Origin: Flavobacteriales bacterium
GTDB lineage: Bacteria; Bacteroidota; Bacteroidia; Flavobacteriales; Flavobacteriaceae
DNA length: 64,000 nucleotides
NCBI GenBank assembly: GCA_017303755.1
Contig: JAFLBS010000001.1
Location: forward strand, 930,001-994,000
Direction: 5' to 3'
The translations under genes were made by a program, and so were the position numbers. Position 1 is the stretch's first letter. Every line of letters starts with the position of its first letter. Positions 37,011 to 62,775 of the stretch are shown here, piece by piece. The notes beneath the pieces were generated by a model, which ran no database searches, had not been told where the DNA came from, and saw only the letters and a list, made by a program, of their open reading frames with translations.

Positions 37011-38468
37011 TTGAGTCTTTATAAAAACCTTTTCAAACAAACTATTATTTACGGATTAGCCACTGTGCTACCCAGAATGTTGAGTTTTTTACTCAATCCG
37101 CTGTATGTTGATGTTTTGCCTTCCAAAGAATTTGCTGATGTTTCCATCGTATTCTCATGGTTGGTTTTTTTCAATGTAATTCTTTCTTACGGAATGGAAA
37201 CGGCGTATTTCCGATTTTTCAACTCCGAAGACGACAAGAAAAAAGTGTTTTCCACTTCCATTGTTTCGCTTTTTTGGTCGTCAATGGCCTTTTTAGTGCT
37301 CGCACTTTTGTACCGCGACACTCTTGCCAATTGGGCCAATATCGAAGTCGAATACGTTACCTATACCATTTGGATTTTAGTGCTCGATGCCTTAGTAATC
37401 ATTCCATTTTCAAAATTACGGGCCGAAAAACGTCCGCTGTATTATGCCGTTGTCAAAATAGGAAGCGTAGTAGTTAATCTGGCGCTCAACCTCTTCTTTT
37501 TATTGGTGTTACCTAAACTTGCCAACAATAATCCCGATGGAATTTTCAACACATTCTATTATCCTGACTTTGAAGTAGGCTACATTTTTGTATCCAATTT
37601 AATCGCTAGTTTAGCCACATTCCTCATTCTTTCTCCCGATTATTTCAAGCTCAATTGGAAATTCGACTGGATATTATGGAAAAAGATGATGACTTACGGT
37701 TTCCCCATTTTACTTGCAGGTTTGGCGTTTGCCATCAACGAACATTTTGATAAAATTCTTCTTGAAAAACTCCATGTTCCTAAGTCTGATATCGGAGCTT
37801 ACGCCGCGTGCTACAAAATCGGAATGTTTATGGTATTGTTCCGAACCGCTTATACACTCGGAATTGAACCGTTTTTCTTCAGTCACGCCAACAACGAGAA
37901 TGCCCAACAAACCTACGCAACCATCACCAAATACTTCGTCATTTTTGGTTCATTCATTTGCCTTTTTGTAATTGCTTTTGTCGATTTACTCAAACAAGTT
38001 TTGGTTCCAAATGAAAGTTATTGGGAAGCCGACAAAGTTGTTCCACTGATCGTTTTGGCCAATTTTTTCCTCGGTATTTACACCAACTTATCCGTTTGGT
38101 ACAAACTCATTGACAAAACCAAAATCGGTGCTTACATCTCCATTATCGGAGCCATTGTAACTTTAGCGTTAAACTGGATTTTAATTCCAAAAATCAGCTA
38201 TTATGGTTCAGCCATTGCAACCATCGCTGCCTACGGAACCATGATGGTCATTTCCTACCGAATGGGACAAAAAAAATACCCAATTCCCTACGACAAACCT
38301 AGAATTTTAGGCTATTTAGCACTGTCAATAGTGTTCTCGGCCGTTTCGTTTTACATTCCATCATTACGCGAAAACTACTACCTCAAAATAGTACTCATTT
38401 CCTTATTTTTATACTTCATTTATTACAACGAAAAAGCCACATTATTGCGCATTGTAAAAAGAAGCTAA
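37011..38468 (+). CDS. MOP-superfamily flippase (RfbX/MurJ-like)
   Basis: The 485-residue protein has about 14 hydrophobic segments and begins YKNLFKQTIIYGLATVLPRMLSF, typical of polysaccharide flippases. The start is a TTG at 37011, because no ATG precedes the first helix. It is distinct from the Wzx at 203 and stands next to dut and a sugar-nucleotide transferase rather than glycosyltransferases. It may export a lipid-linked glycan common to the genus, but its substrate is unknown. The short spacer before it contains repeat-like sequence (GAGAAATCTGCGACCAAAC). Confidence 0.85.
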   Translation: MSLYKNLFKQTIIYGLATVLPRMLSFLLNPLYVDVLPSKEFADVSIVFSWLVFFNVILSYGMETAYFRFFNSEDDKKKVFSTSIVSLFWSSMAFLVLALLYRDTLANWANIEVEYVTYTIWILVLDALVIIPFSKLRAEKRPLYYAVVKIGSVVVNLALNLFFLLVLPKLANNNPDGIFNTFYYPDFEVGYIFVSNLIASLATFLILSPDYFKLNWKFDWILWKKMMTYGFPILLAGLAFAINEHFDKILLEKLHVPKSDIGAYAACYKIGMFMVLFRTAYTLGIEPFFFSHANNENAQQTYATITKYFVIFGSFICLFVIAFVDLLKQVLVPNESYWEADKVVPLIVLANFFLGIYTNLSVWYKLIDKTKIGAYISIIGAIVTLALNWILIPKISYYGSAIATIAAYGTMMVISYRMGQKKYPIPYDKPRILGYLALSIVFSAVSFYIPSLRENYYLKIVLISLFLYFIYYNEKATLLRIVKRS

Positions 38469-38471
38469 TCG

Positions 38472-38611
38472 CGCTGTTCGTTCCACTTTTTGCCTTAAAA
38501 GCGAGGTTTTTGTAAGCACAAAAAGCGCTTCCGTTGGTCGCGTTTTTGCACCAACAAAAACCAAACGCTTTCAAGACAAAAGAGTTCACTTCCATCACGG
38601 CTAGGAATTAC
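38472..38611 (+). repeat. Palindromic dispersed repeat, copy A
   Basis: It opens with GCTGTTCGTTCCACTTTTTG and closes with GACAAAAGAGTTCACTTCCA then TCACGGCTAGGAATTA. The same boundary blocks, in the same order, are found in copy B at 62679-62775. The interior holds inverted A/T-rich stems. Confidence 0.65.
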
Positions 38612-59636: not shown

Positions 59637-61535
59637 ATGAGTGACGCAATCAAACACGAATGTGGAATTGCACTTTTACGATTAAAGAAACCGCTAGAGT
59701 TCTACAAAGAAAAATACGGTTCGGCTTTCTACGGAATACAGAAAATGTACCTTCTGATGGAAAAGCAACACAACCGCGGTCAAGATGGCGCCGGATTTGC
59801 TTCTATCAAATTGGATGTTGAAGCAGGTGAACGCTACATCAGTCGGGTTCGTTCTAACGACGCACAAGCGATTCAAGATGTTTTCAAACAAATCAATGAT
59901 CGCATCAACGACGAAATGACAGCGCATCCCGAATATGCCAATAACGTAGCTTTGCAAAAAGCCAATATTCCATACATAGGCGAATTGTTTTTAGGTCATG
60001 TTCGCTACGGAACTTTCGGTAAAAACAGTATCGAAAGCGTTCATCCATTTCTTCGTCAAAACAATTGGATGCACCGAAATTTGATTGTGGCTGGAAATTT
60101 CAACATGACTAACGTTAAAGAATTATTCAATAGTTTGGTTGAATTAGGACAACATCCCAAAGAAATGGCGGATACGGTTACTGTGATGGAAAAAATCGGG
60201 CATTTCTTAGACGATGAGGTAACCGATTTGTACCAAGAATGTAAAAACAACGGCTTATCCAAAAGAGAAGCTTCACCTGTAATTGCTGAAAAATTGCCGG
60301 TTGCCAAAATTTTAAAACGCGCTTCCAAAGGTTGGGATGGCGGTTATGCAATGGCCGGACTTTTTGGTCACGGCGATGCTTTTGTTTTTAGAGATCCAGC
60401 CGGAATTCGTCCAGCATATTTTTACGAAGACGACGAAATTGTCGTGGTTGCTTCGGAACGACCTGTGATTCAAACCGTTTTCAATGTTCCGTTTGAAAAA
60501 GTACAAGAATTACAACCTGGAAATGCACTCATCATCAAAAAGAACGGAACGGTTACTGAAGAAGAAATTATCGAACCTTCAGTAAAAAAAGCGTGTTCGT
60601 TTGAACGCATTTATTTTTCACGCGGAAGCGATGCCGAAATTTACCAAGAACGAAAAGAACTCGGGAAATTAATTCTGCCAGCCGTTTTAGAAGCCATTGA
60701 TGACGATACCGATAACACGGTTTTCTCTTATATTCCCAATACAGCCGAAACATCATTTTACGGAATGGTCGAAGCGGCCAACGATTTCTTAAATCAACGA
60801 AAAAATAAATTCATTCTTGAGAATAGAAAAAAACTAACCAAAGATTCATTAGAAGAATTATTGGCCGTTAAAATCAGAACGGAGAAAATCGCCATTAAAG
60901 ACGCCAAACTTCGAACGTTCATTACCGATGATAGCAGTCGCGATGATTTGGTTGCTCACGTTTACGATGTAACTTATGGTGTAATCCGTCCAACCGATAA
61001 TTTGGTCATTATTGATGATAGTATCGTTCGCGGAACTACTTTAAAGAAAAGTATTCTCAAAATGATGGATCGTTTGAATCCAAAACGAATTGTTGTAGTG
61101 TCGTCCGCGCCACAAATTCGCTATCCTGATTGCTACGGAATCGATATGGCAAAGCTTGAAGGCTTAGTAGCTTTTCAAGCCGCAATTGAGTTGTTAAAAG
61201 AGCGAAATCAATATCAAATTGTAGATGAGGTGTATAAAAAATGCAAAGCACAAGAGAACTTAAAAGACTCAGAAGTAGTCAATTACGTGTCAGAAATATA
61301 TTCGCCATTTAGCGATATGGAAATTTCAAATAAGATTGCCGAGTTACTGAATTCAGAAGACATCAAAGCGGAAGTGCAACTCATATTTCAATCGGTAGAA
61401 AACCTTCACAAAGCCTGTCCTAAAAATTTAGGTGATTGGTACTTCACAGGTGACTATCCAACTCCTGGTGGAAACCGAGTTGTCAACCGCGCATTTATGA
61501 ATTTTTATGAAGGAAAAGACGCTCGAGCCTATTAA
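59637..61535 (+). CDS. Long amidophosphoribosyltransferase (PurF-like)
   Basis: The 632-residue protein is longer than classical PurF (about 470-510). It has an N-terminal Ntn glutaminase domain with the nucleophile C9 after a short propeptide (MSDAIKHE), HNRGQDGAGF and GHVRYGTFG, with inserts at about 60-115 and 160-225. The phosphoribosyltransferase domain has the PRPP loop VIIDDSIVRGTT (457-468). The Cys pair that completes the 4Fe-4S site of B. subtilis PurF is missing near the C-terminus, so it should not carry the cluster. Bacteroidota often have this long form besides a standard PurF. It would make phosphoribosylamine from PRPP and glutamine. Confidence 0.88.
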   Translation: MSDAIKHECGIALLRLKKPLEFYKEKYGSAFYGIQKMYLLMEKQHNRGQDGAGFASIKLDVEAGERYISRVRSNDAQAIQDVFKQINDRINDEMTAHPEYANNVALQKANIPYIGELFLGHVRYGTFGKNSIESVHPFLRQNNWMHRNLIVAGNFNMTNVKELFNSLVELGQHPKEMADTVTVMEKIGHFLDDEVTDLYQECKNNGLSKREASPVIAEKLPVAKILKRASKGWDGGYAMAGLFGHGDAFVFRDPAGIRPAYFYEDDEIVVVASERPVIQTVFNVPFEKVQELQPGNALIIKKNGTVTEEEIIEPSVKKACSFERIYFSRGSDAEIYQERKELGKLILPAVLEAIDDDTDNTVFSYIPNTAETSFYGMVEAANDFLNQRKNKFILENRKKLTKDSLEELLAVKIRTEKIAIKDAKLRTFITDDSSRDDLVAHVYDVTYGVIRPTDNLVIIDDSIVRGTTLKKSILKMMDRLNPKRIVVVSSAPQIRYPDCYGIDMAKLEGLVAFQAAIELLKERNQYQIVDEVYKKCKAQENLKDSEVVNYVSEIYSPFSDMEISNKIAELLNSEDIKAEVQLIFQSVENLHKACPKNLGDWYFTGDYPTPGGNRVVNRAFMNFYEGKDARAY

Positions 61536-61611
61536 AATTTAACAAAAGATGTAGTTCGTCGATTAATTTAGTATTTTAACAAATATTTTTTACTGTTCAT
61601 CGACTCCCAAC

Positions 61612-61619
61612 TACATTTG
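61612..61619 (+). promoter_or_regulatory. -7 element TACATTTG of sRNA unit 1
   Basis: An exact TAnnTTTG match ending 4 bases before ACCATAG, the same distance as in unit 2. No clear -33 TTG. Confidence 0.6.
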
Positions 61620-61623
61620 GTGA

Positions 61624-61696
61624 ACCATAGCATTAGTAGGTTAAGTTTATGGTAGATTTGGGGCAAAAAAGGTGAAAGTAACATTTCACCTTTTTT
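61624..61696 (+). ncRNA. Candidate small RNA, unit 1
   Basis: The predicted transcript of about 73 bases starts at ACCATAG, pairs ACCATA (61624-61629) with TATGGT (61648-61653) around the loop containing TTAGTAGGTTAAGTTTA, continues through AGATTTGGGGCAAAAA, and ends in an intrinsic terminator (GGTGAAA/TTTCACC, then T6). Its core is nearly identical to unit 2, 188 bases downstream, while the terminator stems differ completely in sequence. No open frame with a start codon is present. Unit boundaries are inferred from promoter box and terminator. It may correspond to a known flavobacterial RNA motif; I cannot check. Confidence 0.7.
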
Positions 61697-61777
61697 ATTT
61701 TATAATAGTCTCACTTTCAAAAAGGTAAATTATACTCGTATTTGCCTATCATCCCAATATAATTCCATTCAAATCGC

Positions 61778-61807
61778 TTGTTTTTACTAACATCAGTAGT
61801 ATTTTCG
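61778..61807 (+). promoter_or_regulatory. Promoter TTG-N19-TATTTTCG of sRNA unit 2
   Basis: TTG at 61778-61780 and TATTTTCG at 61800-61807 (7 of 8 matches) are 19 bases apart, as in Bacteroidota promoters. The box ends 4 bases before ACCATAG. Confidence 0.6.
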
Positions 61808-61811
61808 TGCT

Positions 61812-61886
61812 ACCATAGAATTTAGTAGGTTAAGTTTAATGGTAGATTTGGGGCAAAAAGGCATTCGCTCTTGCGGATGCCTTTTT
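61812..61886 (+). ncRNA. Candidate small RNA, unit 2
   Basis: The predicted transcript of about 75 bases starts at ACCATAG, pairs CTACCAT (61810-61816) with ATGGTAG (61839-61845), carries the same loop TTAGTAGGTTAAGTTTA and the same TGGTAGATTTGGGGCAAAAA, then ends in a 9-bp terminator (GGCATTCGC/GCGGATGCC, one U-G pair, loop TCTT) and T5. Compared with unit 1, one A is inserted on the 3' side of the loop and the pairing shifts to keep the stem, which suggests selection on structure. Function unknown. Confidence 0.7.
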
Positions 61887-61891
61887 AACAT

Positions 61892-61928
61892 AAAAAAACC
61901 GTTCTGATACATTCTCAGAACGGTTTTT
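61892..61928. terminator. Bidirectional terminator after sodA and sRNA unit 2
   Basis: Perfect 14-bp arms (61894-61907, 61915-61928) with a 7-base loop, A7 on the left and T5 on the right, so it can act on both strands. On the minus strand it lies 24 bases after the sodA stop. Confidence 0.85.
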
Positions 61929-61951
61929 ATAATTCAGGACAAAAAGAACTC

Positions 61952-62560
61952 TTATTTTTCAGTTACATACAAACGCGTAACTTCTTCCCAATTAATCAAA
62001 TTGAAGAACGCTTCAATATAATCAGGACGACGGTTTTGGTAGTTTAAATAGTAAGCGTGTTCCCAAACATCCATCCCTAAAATAGGGAAACCAGTGCAAC
62101 CCGCATCAGGCATTAATGGATTATCTTGATTCGGAGTAGAACATACTTCTAATTTTCCACCTTTGTGAACACATAACCAAGCCCAACCCGAACCAAAACG
62201 TGTCGCGCCAGCTTTAGCAAATTGTGCTTTGAATTCGTCAAACGATTTAAAATCTCTTTCAATTGCTTCTAATAACTCTCCTTTTGGCAATCCACCACCA
62301 TTTGGCGACATCACTCTCCAGAATAAGTTATGATTATAAAATCCACCGCCATTATTACGAACAGCCGCGTTTTTCATATCCAAGTTAATTAAAATATTTT
62401 CGATCGTTTTTCCTTCTAAATCAGTTCCTGTAACAGCAGCGTTTAAATTGGTTGTATAGGCATTATGGTGTTTTGTATGATGAATTTCCATAGTGCGTGC
62501 ATCAATATGCGGTTCTAAAGCATCATACGAATAAGGTAATTGTGGTAATTCAAAAGCCAT
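61952..62560 (-). CDS. sodA: Superoxide dismutase, Mn-type
   Basis: The protein, 202 residues from ATG 62560 ([15 protein letters not shown]), has metal ligands H27, H77, D164 and H168. The NNGGGFYNH segment and Q145 in [10 protein letters not shown] are Mn-type markers; Fe enzymes usually have NAAQ.WNH. It disproportionates superoxide in the cytoplasm; no signal peptide. A longer in-frame start at 62608 would add 16 non-family residues and is rejected. It is monocistronic. Confidence 0.95.
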
Positions 62561-62678
62561 GATATCTTTTTTTAAGATTAATACTAAATTGAATTCAAAT
62601 TTAATCATTTAACTTCGCATATCGAAATCATTAACAATAGATTTTACAAATGTTAACATAATTGTTTCTTTTTTTTGA

Positions 62679-62775
62679 AGCTATTTCCTGCTTTTCGTTC
62701 CAATCTTTTTTGTCGTCCCAAGCAAAGGCCAAGGACAAAAAAGGATTTCCACTGCAATCAGGGCTAGGCATTACC
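62679..62775 (+). repeat. Palindromic dispersed repeat, copy B
   Basis: It opens AGCTATTTCCTGCTTTTCGT and closes with CACTGCAATCAGGGCTAGGC. Inside, ATCTTTTTTGTC and GACAAAAAAGGAT form a stem. Blocks GCTTTTCGTTCCA, GACAAAA, TTTCCACT and GGCTAGG correspond in order to copy A (38472-38611). It lies before the GNAT gene and could be misread as its N-terminus. Confidence 0.65.

What the first reader, a model, noticed from the sequence alone, without database searches (positions are those of the whole stretch)
61612..61886. Two tandem small-RNA genes with near-identical structured cores and unrelated terminator stems
Seen: two units 188 bases apart on the plus strand, each with a TAnnTTTG-type box exactly 4 bases before ACCATAG, a core of about 50 bases that is over 90% identical, and a private intrinsic terminator. 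The core pairs ACCAT with ATGGT in both, despite an indel, and exposes TTAGTAGGTTAAGTTTA and GGTAGATTTGGGGCAAAAA. Terminator stems keep structure but not sequence. This pattern indicates selection on an RNA, not a decayed gene. Inference: paired trans-acting sRNAs or a duplicated regulatory RNA with the loop as seed. It may match a catalogued motif such as the Rfam flavo-1 family.
Basis: partly seen in the sequence, partly recalled or inferred. Interest (0 to 1): 0.82.

Follow-up and report, generated by a model that had tools for sequence, protein, structure and literature searches.

The report
Tandem antisense small RNAs of Flavobacteriaceae
Two near-identical small RNA genes in this flavobacterium belong to an apparently uncatalogued RNA family that is widespread in its bacterial family, and their exposed sequence closely matches, in antisense, the starts of messenger RNAs for cell-envelope proteins, which they probably switch off.

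Summary
Window 61624-61699 and 61812-61886 (+) are two ~75-nt RNA genes with a TAnnTTTG-type box, near-identical cores and unrelated terminators. They match no Rfam 15 family at gathering score, Flavo-1 included. A model of the RNA hits 165 of 199 genomes of the family (about one per genus; family and genus names inferred from record titles).

The search also gave targets. In the same genome the loop and the GAUUUGGGG linker both pair with the 5' leaders of two envelope genes, up to the start codon: a CAP-domain lipoprotein (-48 kcal/mol) and an L,D-transpeptidase (-42). In Flavobacterium 33 of 36 CAP starts bind the RNA more strongly than all 652 control starts. In other RNA-carrying genera 42 of 52 CAP leaders pair better than shuffles (z<-1.5); in three genomes lacking the RNA, 0 of 8 do. 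A KTTYRTCGATT-like box upstream of RNA and CAP promoters suggests a feed-forward loop.

Most likely: a multicopy trans-acting antisense sRNA that blocks translation of envelope proteins. Expression and repression are not shown. Conservation of the transpeptidase site, and identity with a transcript already seen in F. psychrophilum (e.g. Rfp18), could not be tested.

The parts
61554..61564 (+). upstream box GTTCGTCGATT (about -70 from the inferred 5' end) of copy 1, same motif as upstream of CAP target genes
   Evidence: zero-mismatch match at G000:C1:991551-991569; position profile; box enrichment
61612..61619 (+). -7 box TACATTTG of copy 1, ends 4 nt before the inferred 5' end
   Evidence: sequence; profile of 203 copies shows TAnnTTTG at -12 to -5; same position as the F. 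psychrophilum sigma-A -7 box
61624..61699 (+). sRNA copy 1 (5' and 3' ends inferred)
   Evidence: fold; CM hit E 1.2e-18 (the model's alignment includes this copy)
61624..61653 (+). copy 1 hairpin: arms 61624-61630 and 61647-61653, loop 61631-61646 (CATTAGTAGGTTAAGT), first pairing region
   Evidence: stem pairs with both-sided changes; pairing with targets
61654..61664 (+). copy 1 single-stranded linker AGATTTGGGGC, second pairing region
61665..61696 (+). copy 1 intrinsic terminator
61800..61807 (+). -7 box TATTTTCG of copy 2
   Evidence: sequence
61812..61886 (+). sRNA copy 2 (hairpin 61812-61843, linker 61844-61854, terminator 61855-61886)
   Evidence: CM hit E 1.5e-12 (also in the model's alignment)

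Best explanation
The two units are copies of a Flavobacteriaceae-wide, often multicopy, trans-acting antisense sRNA. Each is transcribed from its own sigma-A type promoter and ends at its own intrinsic terminator. The RNA folds into a 5' hairpin with a 16-nt loop, a single-stranded linker and the terminator. Loop (UUAGUAGGUUAAG) and linker (UAGAUUUGGGGC) both pair with the 5' leader of a CAP-domain lipoprotein mRNA, reaching the start codon, and in this genome also with the leader of an L,D-transpeptidase mRNA. That should hinder 30S loading, in a phylum that lacks Shine-Dalgarno sites and keeps the -20 to +20 region mostly unpaired (the latter from PMC6847099). RNA and CAP promoters share an upstream box at matching spacing from the -7 element, so one regulator probably switches on both the lipoprotein and its repressor (incoherent feed-forward loop). 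Shown here by sequence: the RNA family, its distribution, the conserved CAP complementarity, and the shared box. Inferred: expression, direction of regulation, the feed-forward loop, and a LytTR-type regulator.
For: Family: strong canonical hits in 47 of 61 Flavobacterium genomes, 165 of 199 family genomes at E<=0.01 (all but G165, G318 and G340 below 1e-7), 15 of 198 in a phylum sample, all of this family. Synteny purF-RNA-sod: both flanks in 90 of 120 genus and 24 of 28 other-genus loci. Targets: the only antisense BLAST hit in the own genome (E 1.2e-4) lies in the CAP leader (PF00188). Of 59 anti-loop sites with at most two mismatches outside the RNA genes, only two stand out and both end 2 nt before a start codon: CAP -48.2 and a YkuD_2 L,D-transpeptidase (PF13645, E 5.3e-69) -41.6 kcal/mol; the next is -31.6, not near a start. 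Genus CAP starts: 33 of 36 at -34.7 to -52.3 against a best of -30.2 in 652 controls. With folding cost: CAP -37.1 (copy 1) and -34.9 (copy 2), transpeptidase -31.2 (copy 1), minimum of 200 controls -18.1. Other genera: 42 of 52 leaders z<-1.5 in RNA-positive genomes, 0 of 8 in RNA-negative ones. Co-occurrence: CAP (E<=1e-25) in 42 of 47 genomes with the canonical RNA and 0 of 14 without. Box: 33 of 36 genus CAP, 22 of 26 other-genus CAP, 9 of 623 controls.
Against: No transcript data were available; no RNA, repression or regulator was measured. Five of 47 RNA-positive Flavobacterium genomes lack CAP at that cut-off, so CAP cannot be the only target. The transpeptidase site was found late and in one genome only; its conservation was not tested, and its promoter shows no good box. 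Outside Flavobacterium pairing is weaker: of 26 leaders energies run from -11.6 to -34.5, and only 4 beat every control (controls scored with the window core, these with the family core). The C-to-A change in many Flavobacterium leaders (CUUAAACUACUA) is not compensated in the RNA. The sRNA-target base covariation is essentially one contrast between clades, and the co-occurrence test ignores phylogeny. Copy 2 of the window shows no clear box by eye; the strict box is in 117 of 266 genus and 5 of 54 other-genus RNA promoters against 5 of 623 controls (relaxed core 220 and 51 against 96). A TAnnTTnG -7 box at the expected place is in 171 of 266 and 36 of 54.
Confidence: 0.78

Rival explanations
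1. The RNA pairs with the leaders but activates or stabilises the mRNAs rather than silencing them.
For: In F. psychrophilum, deletion of the sRNA Rfp18 lowered the mRNA of two metalloproteases, so positive control by an sRNA has a precedent in the genus.
Against: The duplex runs up to, and in other genera over, the AUG, where pairing should hinder initiation; no inhibitory leader structure opened by the RNA was evident in the cofold.
Confidence: 0.12
2. The CAP leader is a decoy (sponge) that titrates the RNA, and the important targets are other mRNAs, such as the L,D-transpeptidase or genes paired by the loop alone.
For: Complementarity is far longer than repression needs; six of 47 distinct CAP upstreams carry two tandem sites; a second strong leader site exists in the own genome; loop-only sites precede DUF4832/DUF4874-like genes in four genomes and a further secreted-protein gene in one (Pfam checked for one of the four); five RNA-positive genomes lack CAP.
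Against: The sites end 2 nt before the CAP and transpeptidase start codons in the own genome rather than lying in a neutral position.
Confidence: 0.1
3. The shared sequence is a DNA-level protein-binding element, not an RNA pairing site.
For: The match lies near promoters in both places, and other promoter elements (the box) are shared.
Against: In the RNA gene it lies downstream of the inferred start within a folded, terminated unit; in the mRNAs it lies at the start codon and in the reverse strand; spacing varies by insertions that RNA bulges tolerate; the eight CAP leaders from three RNA-negative genomes do not show it.
Confidence: 0.03
4. Two copies of a decayed or mobile repeat with no function.
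For: Tandem copies, most of them 171-243 bp apart.
Against: Core conserved in about 160 genera, a terminator in 213 of 215 copies, syntenic locus.
Confidence: 0.01

Closest known systems
FopS sRNAs of Bacteroides (Rfam RF04319; PMC11697453)
   Same: Multicopy ~65-70 nt sRNAs in the same phylum; FopS block translation by pairing near start codons, mainly of SusC-type outer-membrane transporter genes (passages).
   Different: Best score 18.0 bits against a gathering score of 56; FopS genes are described as spread over multiple loci; here tandem copies at one locus, CAP lipoprotein and L,D-transpeptidase leaders, two pairing blocks.
Rfp18 sRNA of Flavobacterium psychrophilum (PMC9723704)
   Same: sRNA conserved in the genus and linked to secreted or surface proteins.
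   Different: Reported pairing is by a third stem-loop with metalloprotease and adhesin mRNAs; CAP and transpeptidase are not named in the passages and sections read; the Rfp18 sequence was not readable here, so identity is open.
Flavo-1 RNA (Rfam RF01705)
   Same: Flavobacterial RNA; two members lie in this window.
   Different: No match between Flavo-1 and the two units.
Trans-encoded antitoxin RNAs of type I systems (recalled)
   Same: Long complementarity of an RNA to few mRNA leaders encoded elsewhere.
   Different: The targets are a 164-aa CAP-domain lipoprotein and a 237-aa L,D-transpeptidase, not a small membrane toxin.

Membership tests
Flavo-1 (RF01705) | score at or above the Rfam gathering cut-off | tested here: not met
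   no hit on the units (61530-61960, E<=5) or 18 (copy 1)
FopS (RF04319) | score at or above the Rfam gathering cut-off (56 bits) | tested here: not met
   18.0 bits, E 0.63
FopS (RF04319) | multicopy short sRNA with own promoter and terminator | tested here: met
   sequence level only; a likeness in working, not in descent
Rfp18 | sequence or locus identity with F. psychrophilum Rfp18 | not testable with these tools
trans-acting base-pairing sRNA | own promoter and intrinsic terminator | tested here: met
   sequence level only:
trans-acting base-pairing sRNA | conserved unpaired region complementary to a conserved site at the start of an unlinked mRNA | tested here: met
trans-acting base-pairing sRNA | discrete transcript and target regulation | not testable with these tools
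   no RNA-seq or reporter data
small protein gene (sORF) instead of sRNA | conserved reading frame and length | tested here: not met
   ORF from AUGGUAGAUUUGGGG: 209 copies, 61 of them 8 codons and the rest 9 to over 70; 66 variants at residues 8-12
type I toxin-antitoxin antitoxin RNA | target encodes a small hydrophobic toxin | tested here: not met
   targets are a 164-aa CAP-domain protein with a lipoprotein-like N terminus and a 237-aa YkuD_2 protein

The most novel reading that the evidence does not exclude
A family-wide envelope circuit: one regulator with a KTTYRTCGATT box switches on both a CAP lipoprotein and a multicopy antisense RNA that silences it, and other cell-wall genes such as an L,D-transpeptidase, through a two-site clamp (loop plus linker). 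Lineages can re-aim the clamp by changing RNA and target leader together: genome G024 carries a divergent RNA whose matching leader belongs to a different, secreted-looking repeat protein.
Probability: 0.45. Interest if true: 0.82.

Novelty: new member of a known kind. Interest (0 to 1): 0.72.

Why it matters
Little sRNA biology is known in Flavobacteriaceae, a major group in sea, soil and fresh water. This RNA has one of the longest conserved sRNA-target matches I know of (recalled comparison), it is found in about 160 genera, it has one or two obvious targets in this genome, and it should be easy to mutate. It makes sRNA repression in bacteria without Shine-Dalgarno sites directly testable, points to RNA control of envelope and cell-wall proteins, and gives a handle on why bacteria keep two to five tandem copies of one sRNA.

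Tried and rejected
Flavo-1 and other Rfam families: rejected. Reading the third own-genome BLAST hit as a third RNA copy: rejected, it is antisense in the CAP leader. Small protein: rejected. Presence outside the family: four marginal hits in another family of the order show no terminator and look like coding or unrelated sequence by eye. Metalloprotease and other box-preceded genes of the own genome as further targets: eight tested including CAP; the other seven pair weakly (E -14.0 to -19.9, z from +0.75 to -2.84, against -8.4 and -9.6 for CAP). My first reading that CAP is the only strong leader site in the own genome was wrong: re-checking the two-mismatch sites gave the L,D-transpeptidase leader. 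Anti-linker sites with up to three mismatches: six, of which two are the RNA genes, one is CAP and three are not near a start. Five linker-like sites in G024 and G055: one lies ahead of an ORF start (G024) and pairs; the other four showed no such ORF and were not scored. Literature: searches listed no paper that I could link to this RNA-target pair; (sequence strings) gave one paper, on mouse, seen as a listing only. Supplements and subscription papers were not searchable, so prior detection as an unnamed transcript is quite possible. PMC9723704: section 15 (first part), section 20 and passages read; PMC11697453, PMC5395568, PMC6847099, PMC4064291: passages only; other papers: listing only.

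Rows dropped: the alignment A1 used 50 of 130 distinct trimmed copies (60 picked for diversity, 10 of these left out, at least two because of a wrong 5' end). Control starts are ORFs of at least 150 aa from L001-L120 and the window, which overrepresent the syntenic locus. In one search the RNA-negative CAP starts come from only three genomes. In one search two CAP loci without an in-frame ATG were left out.

Full report
What is there. Between a purF-like gene (59637-61535, +) and a superoxide dismutase gene (61952-62608, -) lie two short units on the plus strand (gene names by my reading of the translations). Each has a TAnnTTTG-like box ending 4 nt before ACCAUAG, a core of 46-48 nt and a private terminator. 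They fold far better than shuffles (z -3.8 and -5.2). At gathering score cmscan finds no Rfam family on them. In the lax scans nothing on them comes near a gathering score; the FopS model gives 18.0 bits against 56.

The RNA family. With a tolerant pattern, 80 of 121 locus strands (120 loci plus the window) held two to five copies, most of them 171-243 bp apart. A covariance model from 50 copies hit 50 of 61 genomes of the genus at E<=0.01: 47 with strong hits and three with weak ones that turned out to be a divergent form. It hit 165 of 199 family genomes, about one per genus (162 of them below 1e-7), 30 of 196 in the order sample, of which 26 are in this family and four are marginal, and 15 of 198 in the phylum sample, all in this family. 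Both flanking genes were present in 90 of 120 genus loci and 24 of 28 other-genus loci. In the 5' stem 96.0% of cells pair, and two pairs show changes on both sides (three cells; 0 of 500 shuffles reach that count). RNAalifold alone gave only a weak consensus, -0.73 kcal/mol. Loop and linker are nearly invariant, whereas terminators keep only their form (213 of 215 copies, 43 stem sequences).

The CAP target. A BLAST search of the core against the own genome gave three places. The third is not a copy: it is the reverse complement, in the 5' leader of an ORF starting two bases further on. That ORF encodes a 164-aa protein with a lipoprotein-like N terminus and a CAP domain (PF00188, E 2.7e-13). 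In the genus, leaders of CAP homologues carry TTTGCCCCACAATCTACTTTAAACTTAAACTACTA-like sequence before the ATG. Duplex energies beat all 652 control starts in 33 of 36 cases; the three misses are two extra paralogues (in L198 and L199) and L216. Allowing for folding, the own-genome pair gains -37.1 kcal/mol with copy 1 and -34.9 with copy 2, against a minimum of -18.1 and a mean of -8.2 in 200 controls.

A second target in the own genome. The pattern AACTTAACCTACTA with up to two mismatches has 61 places, two of them the RNA genes. I scored the other 59 (31 of them fetched). Two stand out: the CAP leader (-48.2) and the leader of a 237-aa L,D-transpeptidase (YkuD_2, PF13645, E 5.3e-69) at G000:C1:324021-324034 (-41.6 with copy 1, z -6.8; -39.1 with copy 2; cofold gain -31.2). 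The next site is at -31.6 and has no start nearby. The transpeptidase has TATGTTTG 43 nt before the ATG, so its leader would be little more than the two pairing blocks (GCCCCAAATTTACTA and AACTTAAATTACTA). Its promoter shows no good box. The whole-pattern counts (61 places against 246 for the reversed control) show that a match to the loop alone means nothing; the energy and the position at a start matter.

Other genera. The RNA there reads CAUAAGUAGGUUAAG...UAGAUUUGGGGC. Many CAP leaders are short and consist of little more than the two sites, e.g. ACCAAATCTAAATTTACCTACTT-ATG. In 52 leaders from RNA-positive genomes the mean z is -2.54 and 42 are below -1.5; in 8 leaders from three RNA-negative genomes the mean is -0.09 and none is. 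In the 26 leaders scored pairing was mixed, and 4 beat every control. One base of the RNA differs between clades: U in 60 of 62 Flavobacterium copies (one A, one without the motif), A in 55 of 55 others. The facing target base follows: of 30 Flavobacterium leaders A 12, T 3, G 3, no CUACU 12; of 78 others T 15, A 2, G 1, none 60 (A against T Fisher p 2e-4). Matched clades pair better by 1.3-1.7 kcal/mol on average (24 and 22 genomes). With only that base changed in the RNA, the native base is better in 25 of 30 Flavobacterium leaders (3 the other way) but only in 28 of 78 others (20 the other way). This is in effect one contrast, not many independent events.

Co-occurrence. Of 61 Flavobacterium genomes, CAP (E<=1e-25) is in 42 of the 47 with the canonical RNA and in none of the 14 without (Fisher p 5e-10 without correction for phylogeny).

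A re-aimed lineage. Three of those 14 genomes (G024, G033, G055) have a divergent RNA, with loop UAGUAAAUUA and linker UAUUUUUGGGGGC, again with a terminator. In G024 the leader of a secreted-looking repeat protein pairs with it at -34.6 kcal/mol (z -5.4; best of 637 controls -28.9). The cofold shows linker and loop on two sites with an mRNA hairpin between them, the second site overlapping an AUG. The canonical RNA pairs with that leader at -28.7, and the divergent RNA with the own CAP leader at only -24.7 (canonical -48.2). This is one genome; no such leader was seen among three sites looked at in G055, and G033 was not looked at.

Shared control. Upstream of the RNA promoters a [GT]TT[CT][AG]TC box starts at -50 (107 of 266 genus copies) and -70 (92 of 266), 20 bp apart. 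KTTYRTCGATT, with at most one mismatch, lies upstream of 33 of 36 genus CAP genes, 22 of 26 other-genus CAP genes and 9 of 623 controls. The box-to-(-7) distance is 38 or 39 bp in 35 of 47 distinct CAP upstreams; for RNA copies with the box at -50 and the -7 box at -12 it is also 38. In window copy 1 the good box is at -70; copy 2 shows none by eye. In the own genome the zero- and one-mismatch boxes include those of the RNA, a secreted-looking protein and an M43 metalloprotease; the CAP box has two mismatches, as do those of an M14 carboxypeptidase and another metalloprotease-like gene. Counts at three mismatches, 192 against 118 for the reversed pattern, show that weak matches are mostly background.

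Mechanism. The simplest reading is a repressor: the duplex covers the leader up to the start codon, in bacteria that lack Shine-Dalgarno sites and whose -20 to +20 region tends to be unpaired (PMC6847099, passages). Since RNA and CAP share the box, the RNA probably sets a threshold or shortens a pulse of lipoprotein synthesis; tandem copies would raise dosage. A CAP lipoprotein and an L,D-transpeptidase as joint targets point to the envelope. Direction, loop and regulator are inference.

Known or new. No Rfam 15 family at gathering score (for the window, for three relatives). In working it resembles FopS (PMC11697453) but is not a member. I file it as a new member of a known kind, trans-acting multicopy sRNAs.

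Noticed in passing
window 62680-62769 (-) and 38463-38606 (-): Two Flavo-1 RNAs (RF01705; 78.7 and 47.5 bits); the first lies just upstream of the sod gene, about 0.8 kb from sRNA copy 2.
   Followed up: no
L135:788-1498 (-), G000:C1 near 324021: L,D-transpeptidase (YkuD_2) gene whose leader pairs with loop and linker at -41.6 kcal/mol: a second strong target in the own genome; conservation untested.
   Followed up: partly
L406, L407, L408 (G024, G033, G055): Divergent form of the sRNA in Flavobacterium genomes that lack the canonical one; in G024 a secreted-looking repeat protein leader (L443) pairs with it in two blocks.
   Followed up: partly
L169, L173, L181, L189, L172: CTTAACCTACTA directly before the start of DUF4832/DUF4874-like genes in four genomes (Pfam checked for L181 only) and of a further secreted-protein gene (pectate-lyase-like by eye) in one: possible loop-only targets.
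   Followed up: no
L165, L186, L188 (two genes), L195, L196: Six of 47 distinct CAP upstreams carry two TGCCCC target sites 39-53 bp apart.
   Followed up: no
L378 (G000:C5:1589-1646): Three GCATTTCATCG boxes in a row at about 20-bp spacing, a possible strong site for the same regulator.
   Followed up: no
L030, L079: Contigs labelled Lentimicrobium and Chryseobacterium gleum (MAGs) hold exact matches to the core; probably misbinned flavobacterial contigs.
   Followed up: no
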